A stretch of DNA of 22,665 nt from a virus, in the IMG/VR virus record IMGVR_UViG_3300009415_000006, positions 1 through 22,665 of that record. One strand, given 5' to 3'. Positions 2,907-19,915 of the stretch are shown here, one piece after another; positions within the stretch are counted from its first letter, which is position 1; the number at the start of each line of letters is the position of its first letter. The notes beneath the pieces are model-generated. The model did not search any database and was not told where the DNA came from. It saw only the letters and a program-made list of their open reading frames with translations. A program made the translations under genes and the position numbers.

Positions 2907-3320
2907 ATGAAAGACCAAATACGAAACTACTGGCTTAAAGACCAAGGTGGTATGGGCAACTACATCATTGCCAATACCACCAAGACAGAACAACCCGAAA
3001 GAACCTTCATCGATCCCGATTGGGAAGAAATAGAAGAACCCGAAATAATAGAATCGGTAATCCTAAACAATGGCACATCCGTAGAAAAACAAAGCGACGG
3101 ACAAATATTCATCAGCCACCCGACAGGCGTCCCGCCTGAAACGCTCGCAGCACTGGGCCTAACATCCTTAGCGTCATCCTTGGAAAAAGCAAAAGCAAGA
3201 AGCGCCACCCACTCCGCACCCGAGCACGCCGATCAGCCACCGCCTTCAAAAACACAGGAGCCAACTCAGCGCACCGATCCGCCTCATGCACCGCCGCATG
3301 GCACTCCTTGCACAGAATAA
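2907..3320 (+). CDS. hypothetical phage protein with overwritten C-terminus
   Basis: ATG 2907 is preceded by GAGAG in the dyad element. Residues 1-96 look like genuine protein: charged, with EEIEEPEIIESVILNNG, a QSDGQIFISHPTG strand and PPETLAALGLTSLASSLEK. From about residue 97 (nt 3195) the composition becomes Pro/His/Thr/Ala-rich and is exactly antisense to the HNH gene core. The simplest reading is that the original 3' end was lost when the HNH cassette inserted, leaving a chimeric tail of about 40 residues. The function of the N-terminal part is unknown. Confidence 0.55.
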   Translation: MKDQIRNYWLKDQGGMGNYIIANTTKTEQPERTFIDPDWEEIEEPEIIESVILNNGTSVEKQSDGQIFISHPTGVPPETLAALGLTSLASSLEKAKARSATHSAPEHADQPPPSKTQEPTQRTDPPHAPPHGTPCTE

Positions 3321-3564
3321 CCAGATTCTCTAAATTATCGCTCCCACCCTCAGCCCGCGGGCGGATGTGATGCGCTTCCAGCGACCGCTTCCGCCTGCAC
3401 CCCGCCATTCGGCAGCGCCACCCATCCCGAGCCATCGCCCGCCGCTTCTGATTCTGCATCCCCGTGCTGCCAAGCCTGTGGCCGGAAGGCCACACAGGAA
3501 CCTCTATCTTTAATATCTCATAGCCAATCGGTCTTACTTCTAAGGCGCTATTATGTTTCCGCAT
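3112..3564 (-). CDS. HNH homing-type endonuclease
   Basis: This is 150 aa from the minus-strand ATG at 3564, with GGGAG seven nt upstream. A 174-aa form from 3636 would run through the hairpin RNA and is less likely. The HNH core is complete: Cys51-x4-Cys56, LEAHH at 62-66, GGSDNLENL (73-81) and Cys85-x2-Cys88-His89. The cysteines bind structural zinc and the His-Asn-His residues coordinate the catalytic metal. The N-terminus (MRKHNS... GHRLGST) is shared with the minus-strand ORF near 19.6 kb. The last ~28 residues are antisense to the disrupted + strand gene, so the native C-terminus probably ended near residue 122. It is likely a selfish nicking or cutting enzyme. Translation is probably controlled by the adjacent hairpin RNA. 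Confidence 0.8.
   Translation of the reverse strand: MRKHNSALEVRPIGYEILKIEVPVWPSGHRLGSTGMQNQKRRAMARDGWRCRMAGCRRKRSLEAHHIRPRAEGGSDNLENLVILCKECHAAVHEADRCAELAPVFLKAVADRRARVRSGWRFLLLLFPRMTLRMLGPVLRAFQAGRLSGG
3553..3564 (-). promoter_or_regulatory. start-codon element X of the HNH gene
   Basis: Minus strand ATGCGGAAACAT is both the first four codons (MRKH) of the HNH gene and the 3' copy of X. Its complement is in the loop of the hairpin RNA (3606-3617), and a second sense copy lies at 3735-3747. Confidence 0.75.
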
Positions 3565-3578
3565 AATTAAACTCCCAA

Positions 3579-3675
3579 TAAAAAACATCGCCCGATGTCC
3601 GAGGGTGCGGAAACATTTCACCTCAACAGAAGGCAAGCCTACTGGGAAGTCCCTCAGACATCGGGCGATGTCTAC
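3579..3675 (-). ncRNA. candidate start-masking hairpin RNA, copy 1
   Basis: On the minus strand the left arm (3673-3651) and right arm (3602-3582) pair over 20 of 21 positions, and the right arm runs into TTTTTT (3586-3581). It therefore looks like a ~95-nt transcript closed by its own intrinsic terminator. The ~30-nt loop holds AATGTTTCCGCA (3617-3606), the exact complement of the start region of the HNH gene and of an upstream copy. In this copy each arm is itself palindromic (ACATCG-GG-CGATGT). A probable promoter with extended -10 TGATACAAT precedes it. A second cassette at 19.65 kb has the same layout with different sequence. Confidence 0.62.
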
Positions 3676-3681
3676 GAATTA

Positions 3682-3708
3682 ATTGTATCACAAAGTGGCC
3701 CACGCCAA
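3682..3708 (-). promoter_or_regulatory. predicted promoter of hairpin RNA copy 1
   Basis: The minus strand shows TACAAT (3687-3682) with an upstream TG (extended -10), and TTGGCG (3708-3703) 15 bp further up as a weak -35. The block TTGTG-N-TACAAT-N-AATTCG is conserved in the second cassette while the flanks are not. Confidence 0.55.
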
Positions 3709-3747
3709 AGCGTATGAGCCTGCTGTTTGAAGTAAATGTTTCCGCAT
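3688..3747 (-). CDS. possible 19-aa leader peptide beginning MRKH
   Basis: Minus-strand ATG at 3747 with GAAGAA just upstream. It reads MRKHLLQTAGSYALAWATL and stops at 3688. Its first 13 nt (TGCGGAAACATTT) match the complement of the hairpin RNA loop better than the HNH start does. It could be a decoy, a leader peptide or a duplicated 5' end. The second cassette has an ATGATGGTGAGACAG counterpart encoding only seven residues. Confidence 0.35.
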   Translation of the reverse strand: MRKHLLQTAGSYALAWATL

Positions 3748-3761
3748 TTCTTCGTAGAAAC

Positions 3762-3790
3762 AACATACCACGGCTTTCACGCGCGCGCAA
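3762..3790 (-). promoter_or_regulatory. predicted upstream minus-strand promoter, copy 1
   Basis: TTGCGC (3790-3785) and TATGTT (3767-3762) are separated by 17 bp on the minus strand, about 15 bp before the upstream X copy. The corresponding position in the second cassette has a stronger TTGACA-16-TATGGT. Confidence 0.4.
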
Positions 3791-3812: not shown

Positions 3813-3861
3813 ACATAAAGTCATAACGCGCAACAAATTACTTGACAATATTACTTTATGT
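3813..3861. promoter_or_regulatory. inverted ACATAAAGT / ACTTTATGT operator-like pair
   Basis: ACATAAAGT (3813-3821) and ACTTTATGT (3853-3861) face each other 31 bp apart. The second lies between the -35 and -10 of the + strand promoter. Similar ACTTTAAGT boxes occur twice in the second cassette. Confidence 0.4.
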
Positions 3862-3869
3862 GATAAAAT
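3842..3869 (+). promoter_or_regulatory. sigma70-type promoter, + strand
   Basis: TTGACA (3842-3847), a 16-bp spacer and TAAAAT (3864-3869). It reads into about 110 bp with no substantial ORF (only a 13-codon frame from ATG 3912) before the hairpin and palindromic terminator. Confidence 0.6.
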
Positions 3870-3875
3870 TGCATC

Positions 3876-4023
3876 TGACGTTTCTGAATTCGACTCTCGA
3901 CTCTCGTCTTCATGAATATCTCCTTCGCTGCACATAATTTTTCAGTTGGGTAATGGGTTGAGGCGCTTCTAGCGCCAATAAAAAAACAGGGACTATGTCA
4001 ATTGACATAGTCCCTGTTTTTTT
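3876..4023 (+). ncRNA. possible short + strand transcript between promoter and terminator
   Basis: A good promoter at 3842 and a perfect palindromic terminator ending at 4023 bracket about 150 bp without a convincing gene. It contains an 8-bp direct repeat (CGACTCTCGACTCTCG), a 13-codon ORF at 3912-3953 and a GGCGCT-TCT-AGCGCC hairpin at 3962-3976. It may be a small RNA or just cassette flank. Confidence 0.3.
3980..4023. terminator. 44-bp perfect palindrome, bidirectional terminator
   Basis: The centre AATTG-type core and arms ACAGGGACTATGTCAA / TTGACATAGTCCCTGT match perfectly over 22 bp each, flanked by A- and T-runs, so it would terminate on both strands. It ends 37 bp before the first head gene and no promoter is visible in between. 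Confidence 0.85.
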
Positions 4024-4060
4024 TTGCCCAAAAATAAACCACCCAGCAAAAGGCAGAGCC

Positions 4061-4438
4061 TTGCAAATCGAAGTTTTCGGGGTACCCGAAGCGCTAGCCA
4101 AACTCACGCCGCTCGAACAAACAGCCTTCCTCGAAGGCACACTCTTTCGAGCCGCCACCATCATCCAAGGCGAGCTGGCCCAATACCCATCGCAGCCATC
4201 CGGCACAACCTACCGCCGCACCGGTACACTAGGCCGCCGCTGGACATCACGCAAAGACACCGGCGGCGACCAAATAGCCGTCGAAGTTGGCAACAACACA
4301 GAATACGCACCCTACGTCATGGGCCAAGGCACCCAAGCCCGCTGGAACAGCCACTGGCAAACCGACGCCCAAATCGCCGAATCAGCACTCCCAACCATCC
4401 AAACCATGATTCAGGCCCAAATAAACGCAATCACATGA
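4061..4438 (+). CDS. Mu gpG / HK97-gp10-like head-tail completion protein
   Basis: I choose TTG 4061 (AAAGG about 9 nt upstream), giving 125 aa. An ATG at 3995 lies inside the terminator palindrome and is unlikely. The N-terminus MQIEVFGVPEALAKLTPLEQ is typical of small virion-morphogenesis proteins. It is followed by a long helix (FRAATIIQGELAQYP), an RTGTLGRRW segment, a NNTEYAPYVMGQGTQA motif (the XYAxYVxxGT pattern of gp10-like proteins) and a C-terminal helix. These proteins join head and tail or complete the tail end. The position immediately before the protease/capsid gene (ATGA overlap) mirrors Mu gene order G-I-T. The family call is from motif resemblance. Confidence 0.7.
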   Translation: MQIEVFGVPEALAKLTPLEQTAFLEGTLFRAATIIQGELAQYPSQPSGTTYRRTGTLGRRWTSRKDTGGDQIAVEVGNNTEYAPYVMGQGTQARWNSHWQTDAQIAESALPTIQTMIQAQINAIT

Positions 4439-6927
4439 TTGAATTCCCGACAACACTCCCCTCGCTTAGCAGGGGAGGGCTAGGGAGGGGTAAAAAGATA
4501 CACCTCTCCACACCAACCGAGCAACGCCGCCAACTCCGTCTCCAAACCGGCGAACTCCGCGCCCTCGCCACCAGCGACAGCACCAACCGCGTCTACGACG
4601 TAATCCTGCTCCGCAGCGGAACATGGAAAGGTTGGGGCATCAACTGCCCACCCACAGCACTCGCCAACACAGACGTAAACATATTTAATGGCAAGCTCAG
4701 CTTCCTAAACCCGCCCAAACATGGTGATTACGCCAACCACGGCTCGCCATCGCTCGACCTAATGCTCGGCACAATCTGCAACGCCCGCTACGACAGCACC
4801 GAGCAGGCCATCGTTGGCCAACTCGCCCTAGCCGAAGGCACACCCAACGCACAGTGGGTCCAAAATCTGCTAGACGGCGTCATCCAAGCCCGCGACAACG
4901 GCGAACAAATCCCCAATTTAGGCATGTCGTCCGTCGTCTGGATAGACATCGAAGAAGAAACCGACGCAGTCGGCAACTACGTCGTCCGCAGCCTGCTCGA
5001 ATGCGAACAAGTGGATCTAGTCCACAACCCAGCCGCGGGCGGCGAAATCATGCGCATCGCCAACAGCATCGGCCCCGCGCCCTGGCAAAACCAAAGCGAC
5101 ACCGACCAAATTGAGGTCAACAACTCCACATCTACCGAGGCTAACGAAATGTTACTCCAACAACTAATCAACATCGTACTGGCATCCCAAATAGCAGCCG
5201 GTGCCAAAAACGGACTCATCGAGCGCCTATGCGCCAACCCAGACGAATGGACTGAGGATAAGGTAAAAAGCGAACTAACCCAGCTCGCCGCGCGTGGCCC
5301 CGACCCTGCGCCCCAAAACCCACCCGCCCAATCCACTGGCAACGGTCAACCCGCCAACCTAAACACACCCGCCCCCACGCCCCAACCCGCAGGGGCACCG
5401 CCTGCACCAACCCCTCCTCCGGGGCAGCCAGGCAACGAGCAGCAACCTGTCGGTGATAACACCGATTATGCGCGACAGCTTCAAACCCAACTCGCTGTCA
5501 CTCAAAGCGAGCTCGAAGCCGCCCGCCAAGTGCAGGCCAGCTTTCTCGCATCTAGCCGCGAGCACATGCTGGTAACCCAGCTTTCCGCCAGCTCACTCCC
5601 AAGCGTCATGCGCCAAGCAGTCCGTGACACACTCCCAGACGCTTGGACACCAGAGCAGCTCACAGCCGCAATCGAAAACCAGCGAACCATGCTTGGCGCA
5701 CTCCGCGACGACAACGTCATCAGCGGCTTTGGCCTGCCACACACCACCAGCGCCGACGATCAGCAGCTCACCAGCATGGACCAAATAGAACTCGCCACCA
5801 ACGCGCTCTTCGAAGGTGGCCGTCCGGGTGAAGGCGTCCACAGCCTAACCGGTATCAAAGAGCTATACATGCTGCTCTCCGGAGATCGTGAAATGCATGG
5901 CGTATTTAATCGCCAAAATGTTTACCTCAACGGCAACATCAACACAGGCACATTCGCCGGGCTAATCTCACGCTGCTATCACACGCAGGTATACGACAAA
6001 TTTCAGGAGTATACAAAGTGGTGGGAAAAACTAGTTTGCGAAGAAGACTACAACTGCCTCAAGCCAATCGAGCATTGGACAATGGGCGACGTGGTCGGCG
6101 ACCTGCCCAAAGTCAACGAGGCACAGCCATATAAGGAACTCAACTTCAAAGGCAACAAGAAGGAGAAGACCGAATGGTGCAAGCGCGGTGGCTTCATCGG
6201 CATCACGCTCGAAACCATCGACTGTGACGACATGCAGTTCGTGCGCCGCATCCCGCGGCAGCTAGCACGCACAGCCGCCGAAACACTCGGCAACAGCATC
6301 GTCCAAATGCTCGAATACGGCCACATCAGCCCCGTACTCGACAGCACGCAGCAACCAATCTTCTCGGATCAGCAGCCAGGCTACAACGGAGAAATCGTCT
6401 CCAACTACGGCGACCTACCGCTCAGTGTCGATAGCTGGGAACAGGTCAGCGTCGAAATGGAGACGCGCATGAACGAGCAAGGCAAATGCGTCGGCATGGA
6501 GCCAGAATGCATGATCGTCCATCCATCCATGTACATGGCCGCACTGCGCGTACTCGCCTCCATCGGCTGCTGCGACAACGAGAATCCATTCGCGGCCACA
6601 CCCGGCGCAACCATCGACGACGTCGGCGCACGCTTTGCAATGGCCCGCACCAAGGTTATCAAAAGCAAGTATCTCAAAAACCGCAAACGCTGGTACGCCC
6701 TAACAAACAAAGAAGACTGCTGCTCATTCACCATCGGTTACCGCTTTGGTCGCACGCCAGAAATCTTCTCGCTCCCAATGTCCAACCCAATGGATCAGAC
6801 ATACGGCCTCATGTTCCAAGAGGACGTCTTACCCGTCAAGGTGCGGTGGTTCTACGCACTCGGCGCAGTCGATTGGCACGGCATCTACGCCAACGACCCA
6901 ATGAAAGGAATGCCAGCCACACCGTAA
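4435..6927 (+). CDS. prohead protease-scaffold-major capsid fusion protein
   Basis: This is 830 aa from ATG 4435, overlapping the previous stop by 4 bp. Residues ~7-21 are a translated copy of the dispersed hairpin repeat. Residues ~50-205 resemble prohead proteases: a candidate catalytic His102 (YANHG), Ser165/166 in NLGMSSVVW, and the VDLVHNPAAGG motif (193-203). Residues ~235-400 are a Pro/Gln-rich linker plus coiled coil, typical of scaffold. From ~430 the sequence looks like a Mu gpT-type capsid protein, with GDVVGDLPKVNEAQPYKEL, an ITLETIDCDDMQFVRRIPR segment and many Cys (VCEEDYNC, GCC, DCC). The expected role is self-cleavage during head maturation, releasing the capsid subunit. Such fusions are known in phages. 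Catalytic residues are inferred. Confidence 0.82.
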   Translation: MIEFPTTLPSLSRGGLGRGKKIHLSTPTEQRRQLRLQTGELRALATSDSTNRVYDVILLRSGTWKGWGINCPPTALANTDVNIFNGKLSFLNPPKHGDYANHGSPSLDLMLGTICNARYDSTEQAIVGQLALAEGTPNAQWVQNLLDGVIQARDNGEQIPNLGMSSVVWIDIEEETDAVGNYVVRSLLECEQVDLVHNPAAGGEIMRIANSIGPAPWQNQSDTDQIEVNNSTSTEANEMLLQQLINIVLASQIAAGAKNGLIERLCANPDEWTEDKVKSELTQLAARGPDPAPQNPPAQSTGNGQPANLNTPAPTPQPAGAPPAPTPPPGQPGNEQQPVGDNTDYARQLQTQLAVTQSELEAARQVQASFLASSREHMLVTQLSASSLPSVMRQAVRDTLPDAWTPEQLTAAIENQRTMLGALRDDNVISGFGLPHTTSADDQQLTSMDQIELATNALFEGGRPGEGVHSLTGIKELYMLLSGDREMHGVFNRQNVYLNGNINTGTFAGLISRCYHTQVYDKFQEYTKWWEKLVCEEDYNCLKPIEHWTMGDVVGDLPKVNEAQPYKELNFKGNKKEKTEWCKRGGFIGITLETIDCDDMQFVRRIPRQLARTAAETLGNSIVQMLEYGHISPVLDSTQQPIFSDQQPGYNGEIVSNYGDLPLSVDSWEQVSVEMETRMNEQGKCVGMEPECMIVHPSMYMAALRVLASIGCCDNENPFAATPGATIDDVGARFAMARTKVIKSKYLKNRKRWYALTNKEDCCSFTIGYRFGRTPEIFSLPMSNPMDQTYGLMFQEDVLPVKVRWFYALGAVDWHGIYANDPMKGMPATP
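4455..4492 (+). repeat. dispersed hairpin repeat inside the capsid gene
   Basis: CCCCT...AGGGG followed by AGGGCTAGGGAGGGGT, the same family as the copies before 6998, 7760, 12080, 16717 and 17159. Here it lies 20 bp after the chosen ATG and is read through in frame (TLPSLSRGGLGRGKK). Confidence 0.8.
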
Positions 6928-8458: not shown

Positions 8459-10057
8459 ATGGCAATCCAAAACGAACCACCCGTACTACACCCAACACCC
8501 GAATGCTGCGAAGGCCACAACAGCACCGGCAGCCCACAAGCAATGCCTTTCAGCTACACCGATCCATTGCAGCCAGATAAACACTGGCAAACAATCGAAG
8601 AATTCCACGCCACCAAATCAGCCTGCGCAGGTGTATTCTACTGCGACTGCACCAACGACGTACTCTACGTTGGCACAAAAGACGGCTGCCTAAATGACCT
8701 CTCCGGCAACCCACCAGCAGGCGACGGCTCGGGCAACGGCCCCGGCGCAGGCACCGGTCCTGCCAGCGTAGATGGCGAGAATTGCACCTACATCTACATT
8801 ACAGATGAAAACGCGCTCGATGAACCAACGCCAACGACCGAGCAGTGTGACGCATGGCTCGCAGCATTTGACCCAACCCAATACAGTGGGTACGACCCAG
8901 CCGCCAACAACAAATTTACGGTCGAATTTAACGACGGCGGGCAAATTGTATTCCTAGTCAACGAAGATGGCTCAATCAAGCTCGATAAAGATGCACCGCT
9001 TGGACCGCTTGGACCGCTGGCCAGCATGACAGAGGAAGAGCTAAAAGCCTACATCCAAGACTGCATCGGCGACCCACCAACCCCGACAACAGCCGAGGAT
9101 GACAGTTACACCGGCACCGAAGGCGAGGCCTTCAGCGAGGACATCACAACCAACGACGTCCCAAGTGACGAGCTGGCCAGCATCACAAAAGACAGCGGTT
9201 CACTGCCCGCAGGCTTGACGCTAGATACAGCCACTGGCGCAATCACCGGCACGCCAACCGAATCAGGCACATTCACCTGTGATTACACGCTCGTTAGCAC
9301 ATCCGGTTCCACCGACACCGCCACCATCACCATCGTCGTTGAGCCTGCCGCAGCAGGGTGTGTAAAACGAGAAGTCTGTGGCGTAATGAAGTCAGCGGTC
9401 TTCTCGCAAGCAACAGCGGTTCTACAGGGAGGTACTTCGGTCGGAGCAACCCAGGGTGTATGGGATCTGACTTGGCCAAGCGGCATGGAGGGGCGGGTCA
9501 CAATTGACTTTATTGCTGGTAGCAACAATCTAGTTGAGCTTGACGACACAGGTGGACTAGTCCTTGTCAAAATGGAGGATCCAACTGCCTCCTCAGTGCA
9601 AACATCTTACAGTTACAAGAACGAGATCAGGAAAGCCGCACCAGAGCTAGATGGATGTTTGGGTCGAATGCGCTTATACCAAAGATTGCTGGATGGAGAT
9701 AACCGCACATGTTTTAAGGCGGCTACAGTGACTGACTCTAGCGGTGTCGACAATCAGCCTGATTCGGAGACTTATTGCGCTAGCGTGGATGTAGATAACG
9801 CAGACCTTTACATTGATAACAACCTGCTTTCTGGGTTGGTAACTGTAGGAACAATCTGGGAGGGTGAAATTATTTTTGCTGGAGCGAATACAATTCAGAG
9901 TGGATCGGATTGGGTGAACTTCTCCTTCAATGAGGGCTGGCAGGCTCCTGTCAAAGTTACTGTAGAGGATTGCCCGGGGAAAGAACCCGCCTTTGTTTCA
10001 GCAGTAGACGTAGATGGCAATTCGGTTGCTGAAGGAGAAGTCAACTTCACCCCATGA
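8459..10057 (+). CDS. virion surface protein with Ig-like domain
   Basis: This is 532 aa from ATG 8459 (TGAGG 12 nt upstream). Residues ~20-80 (QAMPFSYTDP...CAGVFYCDCTNDVLYVGTKDG) match the small protein encoded at 14785 and may be a shared virion-binding module. A Gly/Pro linker follows. Residues ~215-300 show a putative Ig/cadherin-type (He_PIG-like) domain: LPAGLTLDTATGAITGTPTES, then a TFTCDYTLVSTSG strand. The last ~230 residues are a beta-rich unrecognised domain encoded in DNA of visibly different base skew. A decoration, fibre or capsid-surface role is the best guess. The stop overlaps the next ATG by 4 bp. Confidence 0.6.
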   Translation: MAIQNEPPVLHPTPECCEGHNSTGSPQAMPFSYTDPLQPDKHWQTIEEFHATKSACAGVFYCDCTNDVLYVGTKDGCLNDLSGNPPAGDGSGNGPGAGTGPASVDGENCTYIYITDENALDEPTPTTEQCDAWLAAFDPTQYSGYDPAANNKFTVEFNDGGQIVFLVNEDGSIKLDKDAPLGPLGPLASMTEEELKAYIQDCIGDPPTPTTAEDDSYTGTEGEAFSEDITTNDVPSDELASITKDSGSLPAGLTLDTATGAITGTPTESGTFTCDYTLVSTSGSTDTATITIVVEPAAAGCVKREVCGVMKSAVFSQATAVLQGGTSVGATQGVWDLTWPSGMEGRVTIDFIAGSNNLVELDDTGGLVLVKMEDPTASSVQTSYSYKNEIRKAAPELDGCLGRMRLYQRLLDGDNRTCFKAATVTDSSGVDNQPDSETYCASVDVDNADLYIDNNLLSGLVTVGTIWEGEIIFAGANTIQSGSDWVNFSFNEGWQAPVKVTVEDCPGKEPAFVSAVDVDGNSVAEGEVNFTP

Positions 10058-12000
10058 AGAAGAATTTAAGCCTTATCTTGCTGTTGTGGATGGCAATAAC
10101 AATAATGCCATCCACAACAGCGTTGGCCTCTACACCAACCCCAACTCCTGTTCCAAGCAGGGTTTTCTATGTTTCGAATCAGGGTATCGACTCGAATAGT
10201 GGCACATCCGCTGGTTCGCCTTGGGCTACCATAGCCAAGGTGAACGCTCAAACATTTCAGCCAGGAGATCACATCCTGTTTGAGCGTGGTGATACATGGA
10301 CGGGATCGGGCGTCATAGTGGATGCGGCAGGTGTCGCAGGTGCGCCTATTGTGTACGGCGCATATGGATCAGGATCAAAGCCAAAAATAAATGGTGGTAC
10401 TTCTGCAGCCAACGCAATAGGCACGGCATTCAGCATCGATAATCAGCCATACATTACGATTGAAAATATCGAGATGGCCTATTGGCGATCTGGCATTCAT
10501 TGCCGACGCAACGCAACCAACCAAATATACCGCGACAACTACCTGCGCGACTTTCAGCGTGTGACCAGTTTTGGATTGCAATTTAATACATATTCGGATG
10601 GTGTTTATCGTTGCCAACAAGACGGTACATTCCAGCGCAATCTAATCGAAGATGTAGACTTTCCGATTTACATGGAAAACTGGTCGGGGCAATTTTCGAA
10701 TTGGACAAATCCATACGAAAACACAAATGTTTTGATTCAAGACAATGTTGTTAACTGCCATACATTCGACAATGGTCAACCCTATGGCACCACTCAAAAC
10801 AAGCCCAGTCGCGTGTCGTCTCACGGTATGGATATCAAAGGCACACAAGTTCATCTGGTTGGGAATGCGATTCTGAATTGTGGGAATGCCAACGGCTTAC
10901 ATGGCGTGTACCTTGGTACGCAAGGGGCGGGGAAATCCGTAGTTGAAAACAACCACTTCCAAAGCAACAGTTCGCTTGGTTTGAAAGTGGCAGATATGGA
11001 TAATGTCACCGTTCGTAATAACACGTTCCTTTGGAACGGTCAAGCCTCAATGAATATTGAAGCTGCTAGCCATAATATTTATGTTGGTTGCAACACTTTT
11101 TTGGACAATGGCACAGTTACCGATAGTGGGCATCGAAGCAATGGGCTATTTGTGCGCGGCACGAACAACGAAGCTGCGCTATGGAATGCGTTCCCGCCAC
11201 CAAACTACCAACATGGGCCCAATACGGATATCACCCATGAGTACAATCTCAACTATACGACTAGTGCATACCCCAACAGATCATTTATCTATGCCTACAC
11301 GTACGTCAATAGTGGCACGATCTGGAATTCTACGTCTAATCCAGTTGCGGCACCACCGGCGAACACATCAGACGCAATTACATCATTTGCGTCTGATAGC
11401 AACCAGTACTTTGCGGAGTCTGGAAGCTACAATTACAAATGGCCTGTTGGTATTTTCGATACATCACTAGCTAACTGGCAAGCAGGCACAGTGCATGACA
11501 CTAACAGTGTGTACAGTAATCCTGGATTTTCCGCACCTGGAACGACAAACATGGCATACAGTGGCACAACGTATGGTCACCAGTCTAGTAATTGTCCGCT
11601 AGAGCCAACAAGTGCAACCGTTGTGCGAGCTGACGTCGCCGCCTGTCTTTACGTAAATGAGCCAGCAACACCAACGCCTACCAATACACCAACGCCTACC
11701 GCCACGGCCACGAGCACACCGACACCAACCAACGAACCAGTCATCACACCAACGCCTACCGCCACGGCCACGAGCACACCGACACCAACCAACGAACCAG
11801 TCATCACAGACACACCAACGCCAACTCCTGCCGACACCACACCCATACCAGGGCTCACACAAGTCCCCGCATTTAAATGCACAGACTGTGAAATCATCCG
11901 TCCGCAGTCGGCACCAGCACCATTCGTAGATCCAGAACGTGGCAACGACCTCGACATCTGGCAATGGCTGCTCAACCTAATCCGTAACCTAGAACTATAG
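10054..12000 (+). CDS. secreted right-handed parallel beta-helix protein
   Basis: This is 648 aa from ATG 10054 (ATGA overlap). A classical signal peptide is present: KK, a hydrophobic core LSLILLLWMAITIM, and an ALA cleavage site near residue 25, followed by a (TP)n stretch. Residues ~35-500 carry a YVSNQGIDSNSGTSAGSPWATI-like opening typical of pectate-lyase/polysaccharide-degrading beta-helices, then repeated NxI/NxF rungs (ITIENIEM, VLIQDNVVNC, HLVGNAILNC, VTVRNNTFLW). After that come Thr/Pro linkers with a 60-bp duplication and a short C-terminal tail (DIWQWLLNLI). It probably binds or depolymerises cell-surface polysaccharide. Catalytic residues are not assignable. A Sec signal in a virion operon is unusual. 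Confidence 0.75.
   Translation: MKKNLSLILLLWMAITIMPSTTALASTPTPTPVPSRVFYVSNQGIDSNSGTSAGSPWATIAKVNAQTFQPGDHILFERGDTWTGSGVIVDAAGVAGAPIVYGAYGSGSKPKINGGTSAANAIGTAFSIDNQPYITIENIEMAYWRSGIHCRRNATNQIYRDNYLRDFQRVTSFGLQFNTYSDGVYRCQQDGTFQRNLIEDVDFPIYMENWSGQFSNWTNPYENTNVLIQDNVVNCHTFDNGQPYGTTQNKPSRVSSHGMDIKGTQVHLVGNAILNCGNANGLHGVYLGTQGAGKSVVENNHFQSNSSLGLKVADMDNVTVRNNTFLWNGQASMNIEAASHNIYVGCNTFLDNGTVTDSGHRSNGLFVRGTNNEAALWNAFPPPNYQHGPNTDITHEYNLNYTTSAYPNRSFIYAYTYVNSGTIWNSTSNPVAAPPANTSDAITSFASDSNQYFAESGSYNYKWPVGIFDTSLANWQAGTVHDTNSVYSNPGFSAPGTTNMAYSGTTYGHQSSNCPLEPTSATVVRADVAACLYVNEPATPTPTNTPTPTATATSTPTPTNEPVITPTPTATATSTPTPTNEPVITDTPTPTPADTTPIPGLTQVPAFKCTDCEIIRPQSAPAPFVDPERGNDLDIWQWLLNLIRNLEL
11686..11808 (+). 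repeat. perfect 60-bp tandem duplication in PT-rich linker
   Basis: 11686-11745 and 11746-11805 are identical over 60 bp and encode two 20-residue TPTPTATATSTPTPTNEPVI units. Identity at every third base indicates a recent duplication or ongoing copy-number change. Confidence 0.92.
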
Positions 12001-19409: not shown

Positions 19410-19500
19410 GGCGCACTGGTACGCCGCATACGAGGCAGTCACACAGCGAGACGCTGTGATTGCATGGGATACCCGTCCCAGAAAGAAAGGCGAGGACTAG
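19393..19500 (+). CDS. 35-aa second chaperone ORF (GT-like), overlapping
   Basis: ATG 19393 lies within the last codons of the chaperone gene, in the +1 frame, and that frame is open well upstream, so a frameshifted fusion is also possible. The peptide MSGQDRAHWYAAYEAVTQRD... has the aromatic/Ala helix typical of lambda GT-type tails. The stop TAG is the exact centre of the following palindromic terminator. No classic -1 slippery heptamer is visible. Reinitiation at ATG is the simpler expression route. Confidence 0.5.
   Translation: MSGQDRAHWYAAYEAVTQRDAVIAWDTRPRKKGED
19442..19458 (+). other. short perfect hairpin inside the GT-like ORF
   Basis: CACAGCG-aga-CGCTGTG, seven base pairs with a 3-nt loop, 33 nt after the chaperone stop. 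It is too far from the overlap to be a standard frameshift stimulator but may modulate reinitiation. Confidence 0.5.
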
Positions 19501-19513
19501 TCCTCGCCTTTCT
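19484..19513. terminator. 30-bp perfect palindrome, bidirectional terminator
   Basis: AGAAAGGCGAGGACT and its exact complement meet at 19498/19499, ending in CCTTTCT on the + strand and the same on the minus strand. It should stop + strand transcription after the chaperone and minus-strand transcription from the HNH-like cassette. Confidence 0.75.
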
Positions 19514-19647
19514 CATACAAATATAAAATAACCCGTTCCACGCAGTCGATCCTAACCGTCGACCAACCGGGCACGCGACCGGAATATACACCACCTCAAA
19601 CGTCGCTACTTCAGAATTTTGATGTCTCACCATCATCTTACTCCATA

Positions 19648-19741
19648 TAAAAATAGCACAACCGAGTACCCAAGGTGATGGTGAGACATCTTCACGCTGG
19701 CAAGCCGTTGTGAGGAACCTTGAGCACTCGGTTGTGCTATC
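19648..19741 (-). ncRNA. candidate start-masking hairpin RNA, copy 2
   Basis: On the minus strand ATAGCACAACCGAGT...CAAGG (19740-19718) pairs with CCTTG...ACTCGGTTGTGCTAT (19674-19652), about 20-21 of 23 positions, followed by TTTTT. The loop carries GATGTCTCACCATCA (19690-19676), complementary over 15 nt to the start region of the downstream ORF and over 13 nt to an upstream copy. It has the same order and nearly the same size (~94 nt) as the RNA at 3579-3675 with unrelated stem and loop sequence. Confidence 0.65.
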
Positions 19742-19747
19742 GAATTT

Positions 19748-19770
19748 ATTGTAACACAAATCAGCCCCGC
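19748..19770 (-). promoter_or_regulatory. predicted promoter of hairpin RNA copy 2
   Basis: TG-T-TACAAT (extended -10; TACAAT at 19753-19748) on the minus strand, with TTGCGC- or CTTGCG-like hexamers 15-16 bp upstream. The block is conserved with the first cassette. Confidence 0.5.
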
Positions 19771-19829
19771 GCAAGACGCGCAAAGGGCCAGCATTCACGA
19801 AGTCTGTCTCACCATCATTCGTAAATGCC

Positions 19830-19857
19830 ACCATATCACAAAAAAAACCTTTGTCAA
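19830..19857 (-). promoter_or_regulatory. predicted upstream minus-strand promoter, copy 2
   Basis: TTGACA (19857-19852), 16-bp spacer with a T-tract, TATGGT (19835-19830). It lies 12 bp before the upstream X copy (ATGATGGTGAGACAG), whose small frame (MMVRQTS, 19818-19795) stops almost at once. Confidence 0.55.
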
Positions 19858-19867
19858 GCGCAATATT

Positions 19868-19915
19868 ACTTTAAGTAATTTATCCACGAAACTGGTCCAA
19901 TTCTTCACTTTAAGT
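19868..19915. promoter_or_regulatory. paired ACTTTAAGT boxes before the tape measure gene
   Basis: ACTTTAAGT at 19868-19876 and 19907-19915; the second ends one base before ATG 19917. CAATATTACTTTA around the first is identical to the block at 3846-3858 in cassette 1. No good SD for the tape measure gene is visible here. Confidence 0.4.

What the first reader, a model, noticed from the sequence alone, without database searches (positions are those of the whole stretch)
19621..19857. Second cassette with the same architecture but different sequence: covariation across the window
19.62-19.86 kb repeats the cassette-1 plan: TTGACA promoter, X2 (TGATGGTGAGACA), TGTTACAAT promoter, arm, anti-X2, arm plus TTTTT, SD, X2 at the start codon (ATGATGGTGAGACATC). 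The stem arms and the X/anti-X pairs are unrelated in sequence to cassette 1 (GCACAACCGAGT versus ACATCGGGCGATGT; GTGAGACA versus GCGGAAACA), yet both pairings persist. Preserved pairing with changed sequence is direct comparative evidence that both helices matter, and that each copy is tuned to its own start codon so that the two would not cross-regulate.
Basis: seen in the sequence. Interest (0 to 1): 0.9.

Follow-up and report, generated by a model that had tools for sequence, protein, structure and literature searches.

The report
Phage antisense-RNA switch on nuclease gene
An uncultured phage carries two related gene-control cassettes in which a small hairpin RNA, made just upstream of a gene on the same strand, can pair with that gene's start codon and with a decoy copy of it; each cassette has its own matched code, much like the antisense RNA that gives phages P1 and P7 their separate immunities, but here one cassette controls a DNA-cutting (HNH) enzyme gene.

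Summary
On the minus strand at 19857-19439 the order is promoter, X, second promoter, hairpin arm, anti-X, arm with U-run, SD, X at the start codon. The same order and spacing (X to X 182 and 183 bases) recurs at 3790-3112 before an HNH-endonuclease ORF. A detector for this plan finds only these two places in the window and none in 60 shuffled windows. All three differences are compensated in anti-X and copied in the upstream X. The hairpin stem keeps 21 of 21 pairs with 10 two-sided changes. This makes the covariation argument stronger. The plan is not new: phage P1/P7 C4 antisense RNA has the order a1b1 - C4 - a2b2 - icd, and phage P4 has seqA - CI RNA - seqC. P1, P7 and D6 also have private matched codes. 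Rfam's C4 model does not match either cassette. Most likely this is a C4-like same-strand antisense RNA that blocks translation of an HNH gene (cassette 1) and of a 64-codon ORF without HNH (cassette 2). No further members were found. Nothing here shows transcription or function.

The parts
19830..19857 (-). cassette 2 promoter P1, TTGACA-16-TATGGT with TG before the -10
19791..19828 (-). cassette 2 5' hairpin (11-bp stem GCATTTACGAA / TTCGTGAATGC) presenting the upstream X2 in its loop
19805..19818 (-). upstream X2, ATGATGGTGAGACA (target-like copy)
19748..19758 (-). cassette 2 promoter P2, extended -10 TGTGTTACAAT (TTTGTGnTACAATnAATTCG shared with cassette 1)
19649..19741 (-). predicted antisense RNA 2, about 93 nt, from P2 start to U-run
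   Evidence: fold -48.6 kcal/mol
19718..19740 (-). 5' arm of stem
19692..19713 (-). inner hairpin with CUUG tetraloop (GGCUUGCC shared with cassette 1)
19676..19690 (-). anti-X2 GATGTCTCACCATCA, abutting the 3' arm
19653..19675 (-). 3' arm of stem, followed by U-run (intrinsic-terminator shape)
19641..19644 (-). Shine-Dalgarno GGAG
19621..19636 (-). X2 at the start codon, ATGATGGTGAGACATC
19439..19633 (-). 64-codon ORF from the second ATG (MVRHQNS...GRRLGST...), no HNH domain; P0002 is the 65-residue reading from the first ATG
3762..3790 (-). cassette 1 promoter P1, TTGCGC-17-TATGTT with TG before the -10 (weak -35)
   Evidence: read
3729..3753 (-). cassette 1 5' hairpin presenting the upstream X1 (3747-3736)
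3682..3690 (-). cassette 1 promoter P2, TGATACAAT
3579..3674 (-). predicted antisense RNA 1 with stem arms 3673-3651 and 3605-3583
   Evidence: fold -52.6 kcal/mol
3606..3616 (-). anti-X1 ATGTTTCCGCA, abutting the 3' arm
3553..3564 (-). X1 at the start codon, ATGCGGAAACAT
3112..3564 (-). HNH endonuclease ORF (150 aa, P0001)
   Evidence: PF01844 1.1e-11; PHROG HNH

Best explanation
Each cassette is a self-contained antisense-RNA control unit of the same kind as phage P1/P7 C4 and phage P4 CI. Promoter P2 makes a short hairpin RNA that ends at its own U-run. Its anti-X segment, held next to the 3' arm as a small loop, pairs with X at the start codon of the downstream gene (start codon plus codons 2-4) and blocks ribosome entry. 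Promoter P1 makes a longer RNA that starts with a second copy of X in a hairpin loop. That copy, with a second short complementary block behind it, can capture anti-X in cis or in trans. It either relieves the block or, as in P4, marks the nascent transcript for termination at the hairpin. The target genes are an HNH endonuclease (cassette 1) and a short ORF with a related N-terminus but no HNH domain (cassette 2). Shown by sequence: the order, the pairings, their covariation, promoter-like and terminator-like signals. Inferred: transcription from P1 and P2, translation block, the role of the upstream X, trans action, absence of cross-talk.
For: Two homologous copies with 21/21 stem pairs kept, 10 two-sided changes and 0 broken; sliding the 3' side by 1-3 columns drops pairing to 33-43%. 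Three two-sided X:anti-X compensations, same three changes in the upstream X. P2's expected start falls on the first base of the stem in both. Leaving aside the strand that encodes anti-X itself, the two X2 copies are the best targets of anti-X2 in the whole window (-27.5 each, next best -23.6); for anti-X1 the start-codon site ties with others at -21.4. A second complementary block lies behind the upstream X (tail-shuffle p = 0.0045 and 0.022). P1's record annotates the same order: a1, b1 targets, C4 RNA, a2, b2 targets, icd. P1, P7 and D6 show the same kind of matched code changes. C4 folds into the same layout: long stem, tetraloop hairpin, antisense loop, 3' arm. P4 CI pairs with seqA upstream and seqC downstream (PMC4825925).
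Against: Only two sequences, in one contig. No transcript data. Rfam C4 and c4-a1b1 do not match. The cassette-2 ORF lacks the HNH domain, so either the loss is recent or the short ORF or the RNA itself is what is kept. The long stem with U-run should stop most P1 transcripts, so how the ORF is reached is unexplained. For cassette 1 the 11-nt start-codon pairing is not unique by energy in the window.
Confidence: 0.72

Rival explanations
1. A purely cis-acting leader: there is no separate sRNA; within one transcript anti-X pairs either with the upstream X (gene on) or with the start-codon X (gene off), and the terminator hairpin attenuates.
For: All elements lie on one strand in order, and the upstream X pairs at least as well as the start-codon X over the whole loop (-37.6 and -40.2 against -33.6 and -32.7).
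Against: An extended -10 promoter sequence (TTTGTGnTACAATnAATTCG) sits exactly at the stem start in both cassettes, which a cis-only leader does not need; the product would be a complete terminated hairpin.
Confidence: 0.15
2. A type I toxin-antitoxin module: the ORF product is toxic and the sRNA is its antitoxin.
For: Short ORF with its own antisense RNA at the start codon; HNH nucleases can be harmful to the cell.
Against: Cassette-1 product is an HNH endonuclease of the phage/homing kind, not a small membrane peptide; cassette-2 product matches no Pfam, PHROG or NCBIfam family. PADLOC was not searched.
Confidence: 0.06
3. A DNA-level element: X and anti-X are inverted repeats used as recombination, inversion or endonuclease target sites, and RNA pairing is incidental.
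For: X is a near-palindrome (ATG-N6-CAT) present in direct and inverted copies; HNH homing enzymes recognise sites near their genes.
Against: The changing stem, the U-run, SD spacing and X fixed on the start codon are RNA and translation features; no recombinase was noticed in the window; the half-sites are only 3-5 bp.
Confidence: 0.04
4. Chance or assembly artefact.
For: Only one contig.
Against: Zero hits in 60 shuffled windows; two diverged copies 16 kb apart.
Confidence: 0.02

Closest known systems
C4 antisense RNA of phages P1 and P7 (immI; Rfam RF01695 with c4-a1b1 RF03163)
   Same: Antisense RNA on the same strand just upstream of its target gene; order target copy - antisense RNA - target copy at the ribosome binding site; long stem closing a tetraloop hairpin and an antisense loop next to the 3' arm; upstream target in a hairpin; codes differ between P1, P7 and D6 while matching within each.
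   Different: C4 has two short blocks (7 and 8 nt); here one 11-15-nt block covers the start codon itself. Both C4 promoters lie before a1, while here one promoter lies between upstream X and hairpin. Here the hairpin carries a U-run. Target is an HNH gene or short ORF, not icd/ant. No Rfam match. Two different codes in one genome.
CI RNA of satellite phage P4 (seqA - seqB in CI - seqC)
   Same: Antisense segment flanked by two complementary copies on the same transcript (PMC4825925).
   Different: CI acts by premature termination and is processed from the leader; here the pairing sits on a start codon. My exact-match search did not recover seqA/B/C in the P4 record.
RBS-sequestering hairpins of phage homing endonuclease genes (I-TevI, Aeh1 mobE, T4 segB)
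   Same: Tight translational control of a phage endonuclease gene by RNA structure (PMC3014915).
   Different: Those are simple cis hairpins over the RBS, with no antisense RNA and no second target copy.
CfrI antisense RNA next to the F-CphI homing endonuclease gene in cyanophage S-PM2
   Same: Antisense RNA near a phage homing endonuclease (PMC12197685).
   Different: Antisense to psbA; a different design.

Membership tests
C4 antisense RNA (RF01695) | matches the Rfam covariance model | tested here: not met
   No match at gathering, none at E<=10 in either cassette; P1 C4 as control scores 68.8 bits
C4 antisense RNA (RF01695) | antisense RNA on the same strand, upstream of its target gene, complementary to the ribosome binding region | tested here: met
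   (by sequence; that an RNA is made is inferred)
C4 antisense RNA (RF01695) | a second target copy upstream of the RNA (a1 b1), in a hairpin | tested here: met
   but RF03163 not matched
C4 antisense RNA (RF01695) | two separate complementary blocks a and b at both targets | tested here: not met
   one block at the start codon; a second block only at the upstream copy
C4 antisense RNA (RF01695) | controls icd/ant antirepressor operon | tested here: not met
   HNH ORF or short ORF
C4 antisense RNA (RF01695) | processed from the long transcript, acts in trans | not testable with these tools
   needs RNA data
P4 CI RNA | complementary copies upstream and downstream of the antisense segment | tested here: met
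P4 CI RNA | acts by transcription termination of the leader | not testable with these tools
   needs RNA data
Homing endonuclease (HNH) | HNH domain in the controlled ORF | tested here: met
   cassette 1: PF01844 1.1e-11; cassette 2: absent
Homing endonuclease (HNH) | cuts alleles lacking the insertion and spreads into them | not testable with these tools
   no close relatives of the phage found
IscB / RNA-guided HNH | RuvC domains around HNH, ~400+ aa | tested here: not met
   150-aa protein, only the HNH part aligns

The most novel reading that the evidence does not exclude
An RNA-coded self/non-self switch for selfish nuclease cassettes: a cell or phage that already carries a cassette makes the matching antisense RNA and keeps an incoming copy's nuclease silent, while a cassette with a different 6-base loop code is not recognised. 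One phage then carries two 'heteroimmune' codes, one still armed (HNH) and one reduced to code plus short ORF.
Probability: 0.15. Interest if true: 0.75.

Novelty: new variant of a known kind. Interest (0 to 1): 0.52.

Why it matters
Same-strand target-antisense-target control is best known from phages P1/P7 and satellite P4 of enteric bacteria, where it sets immunity. This would extend the design to a distant, uncultured phage (host perhaps Chloroflexota, a guess), to a nuclease gene, to direct start-codon masking, and to two separately coded copies in one genome. It would make the divergence of antisense codes testable on paralogues, and it supplies a search template (X - arm - anti-X - arm - X on a start codon) that does not depend on sequence.

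Tried and rejected
Relatives of the HNH protein: none close in IMG/VR by peptide patterns, only generic HNH domains in phages and plasmids and in about 200 genomes of one phylum. Relatives of the phage's structural proteins: none in IMG/VR; weak capsid hits to Microcystis and Pseudomonas phages. DNA patterns from shared cassette parts: five collection scans gave only chance matches without the plan (checked in 27, 48, 69, 103, 104). A covariance model of the two RNAs found nothing convincing in about 570 kb of loci beyond the window or in about 590 genomes of three phyla; an empty answer there shows little, since no genome known to hold a member was in the set. IscB/omega-RNA idea: dropped, since only the HNH part aligns. 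Target-site-duplication idea (RNA cassette inserted between two X copies): not excluded, but the 5' hairpin built around the upstream X argues for function. Rfam near-hits to plant and animal microRNA families are long-hairpin noise.

Full report
What was checked. The window is a 22,665-base IMG/VR virus record. The finding's elements were read on the minus strand. Cassette 2 runs: TTGACA-16-TATGGT, X2, TGTGTTACAAT, 23-nt arm, inner hairpin, anti-X2, arm, U-run, GGAG, X2 on the start codon. Cassette 1 (3790-3112) has the same plan before a 150-aa HNH ORF (PF01844, E 1.1e-11). The two X copies lie 182 and 183 bases apart. A script that looks for word / reverse complement / word with flanking arms finds only these two places in the window, and none in 60 dinucleotide-shuffled windows.

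The GGAG lies 7 bases before ATG in cassette 1 and 7 bases before the second ATG in cassette 2. With that register the start-codon elements are ATG-CGG-AAA-CAT (MRKH) and ATG-GTG-AGA-CAT (MVRH), 9 of 12 bases the same. Positions 4, 5 and 8 differ. Each is changed on both sides of the X:anti-X pairing, and the same change is in the upstream X. The long stem keeps all 21 aligned pairs with 10 changed on both sides, 3 on one side and none broken; shifting the register removes this. Outside these parts the P2 promoter block, the U-run/SD block, GGCTTGCC and the N-terminal peptide are shared. So the cassettes are diverged homologues with real covariation. The limit is that there are only two sequences.

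Shape. X is ATG-N6-CAT, so X and anti-X can each form a small hairpin with a 6-nt loop (CGGAAA against UUUCCG; GUGAGA against UCUCAC), a natural start for loop-loop pairing (read from sequence; folds; in cassette 1 the anti-X hairpin is weak). P2's expected start is the first base of the stem in both, so its product would be a compact hairpin of about 95 nt ending in U's. Duplex energies are -17 to -27 kcal/mol for cognate and -6 to -10 for swapped pairs. The upstream X carries a further complementary block (AACAGcAGGC in cassette 1, GCTGGC in cassette 2) and binds the whole loop more strongly than the start-codon site does (-37.6 against -33.6, and -40.2 against -32.7; tail-shuffle p 0.0045 and 0.022).

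What it works like. The P1 record annotates, on one strand: promoters, a1 and b1 target sites, C4 RNA, a2 and b2 target sites, icd. Rfam's C4 structure is a long stem closing a tetraloop hairpin, a second hairpin with an antisense loop, and an unpaired antisense stretch against the 3' arm, much the same layout as here. Aligning P1, P7 and D6 shows their a and b codes change together in all three places, and C4 is held responsible for P1/P7 heteroimmunity (PMC12197685). P4 CI RNA likewise pairs with seqA upstream and seqC downstream (PMC4825925). Membership in the Rfam C4 family was tested and not met. So it works like C4/CI but is not filed as C4.

Mechanism, with status. (1) An antisense RNA from P2: inferred from promoter and terminator shape. 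(2) Pairing with the start codon: supported by covariation. (3) Block of translation: inferred from position. (4) Upstream X as decoy or termination site: inferred; not decided. (5) Private codes: supported by energies only. Keeping a phage endonuclease gene translationally quiet has precedent in I-TevI, mobE and segB (PMC3014915).

Open points. Cassette 2 keeps a perfect leader though its ORF has no HNH domain. How transcription passes the hairpin is unknown. No third member was found in any collection reachable here, so host range and age are unknown.

Noticed in passing
3842-4023 (+): Strong promoter-like site TTGACA-16-TAAAAT (11 of 12) divergent from cassette 1, followed by a perfect 22-bp palindrome with T-run (3980-4023): a possible ~150-nt transcript ending just at the start of the next + strand gene.
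   Followed up: no
19484-19513: Perfect 15-bp palindrome with T-runs on both sides (bidirectional terminator shape) downstream of cassette 2; the cassette 2 ORF reads through it.
   Followed up: no
19862-19882 and 3845-3862 (-): Shared AAAGTAATATTG upstream of P1 in both cassettes, inside a 15-base palindrome ATTACTTAAAGTAAT in cassette 2; possible operator.
   Followed up: no
3112-3320: The HNH ORF's C-terminus overlaps the end of the opposite-strand gene 2907-3320; the reading frames suggest that insertion of the cassette changed that gene's end.
   Followed up: no
10054-12000 (+): Secreted-looking protein with TPTPTATATSTPTPT repeats (two exact 60-bp copies), a style common in Chloroflexota; basis of the host guess.
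   Followed up: no
4024-6927 (+): Very long ORF matching head maturation protease and major head protein PHROGs: protease and capsid apparently fused.
   Followed up: no
15-136: Five exact copies of a 24-bp repeat inside an ORF.
   Followed up: no
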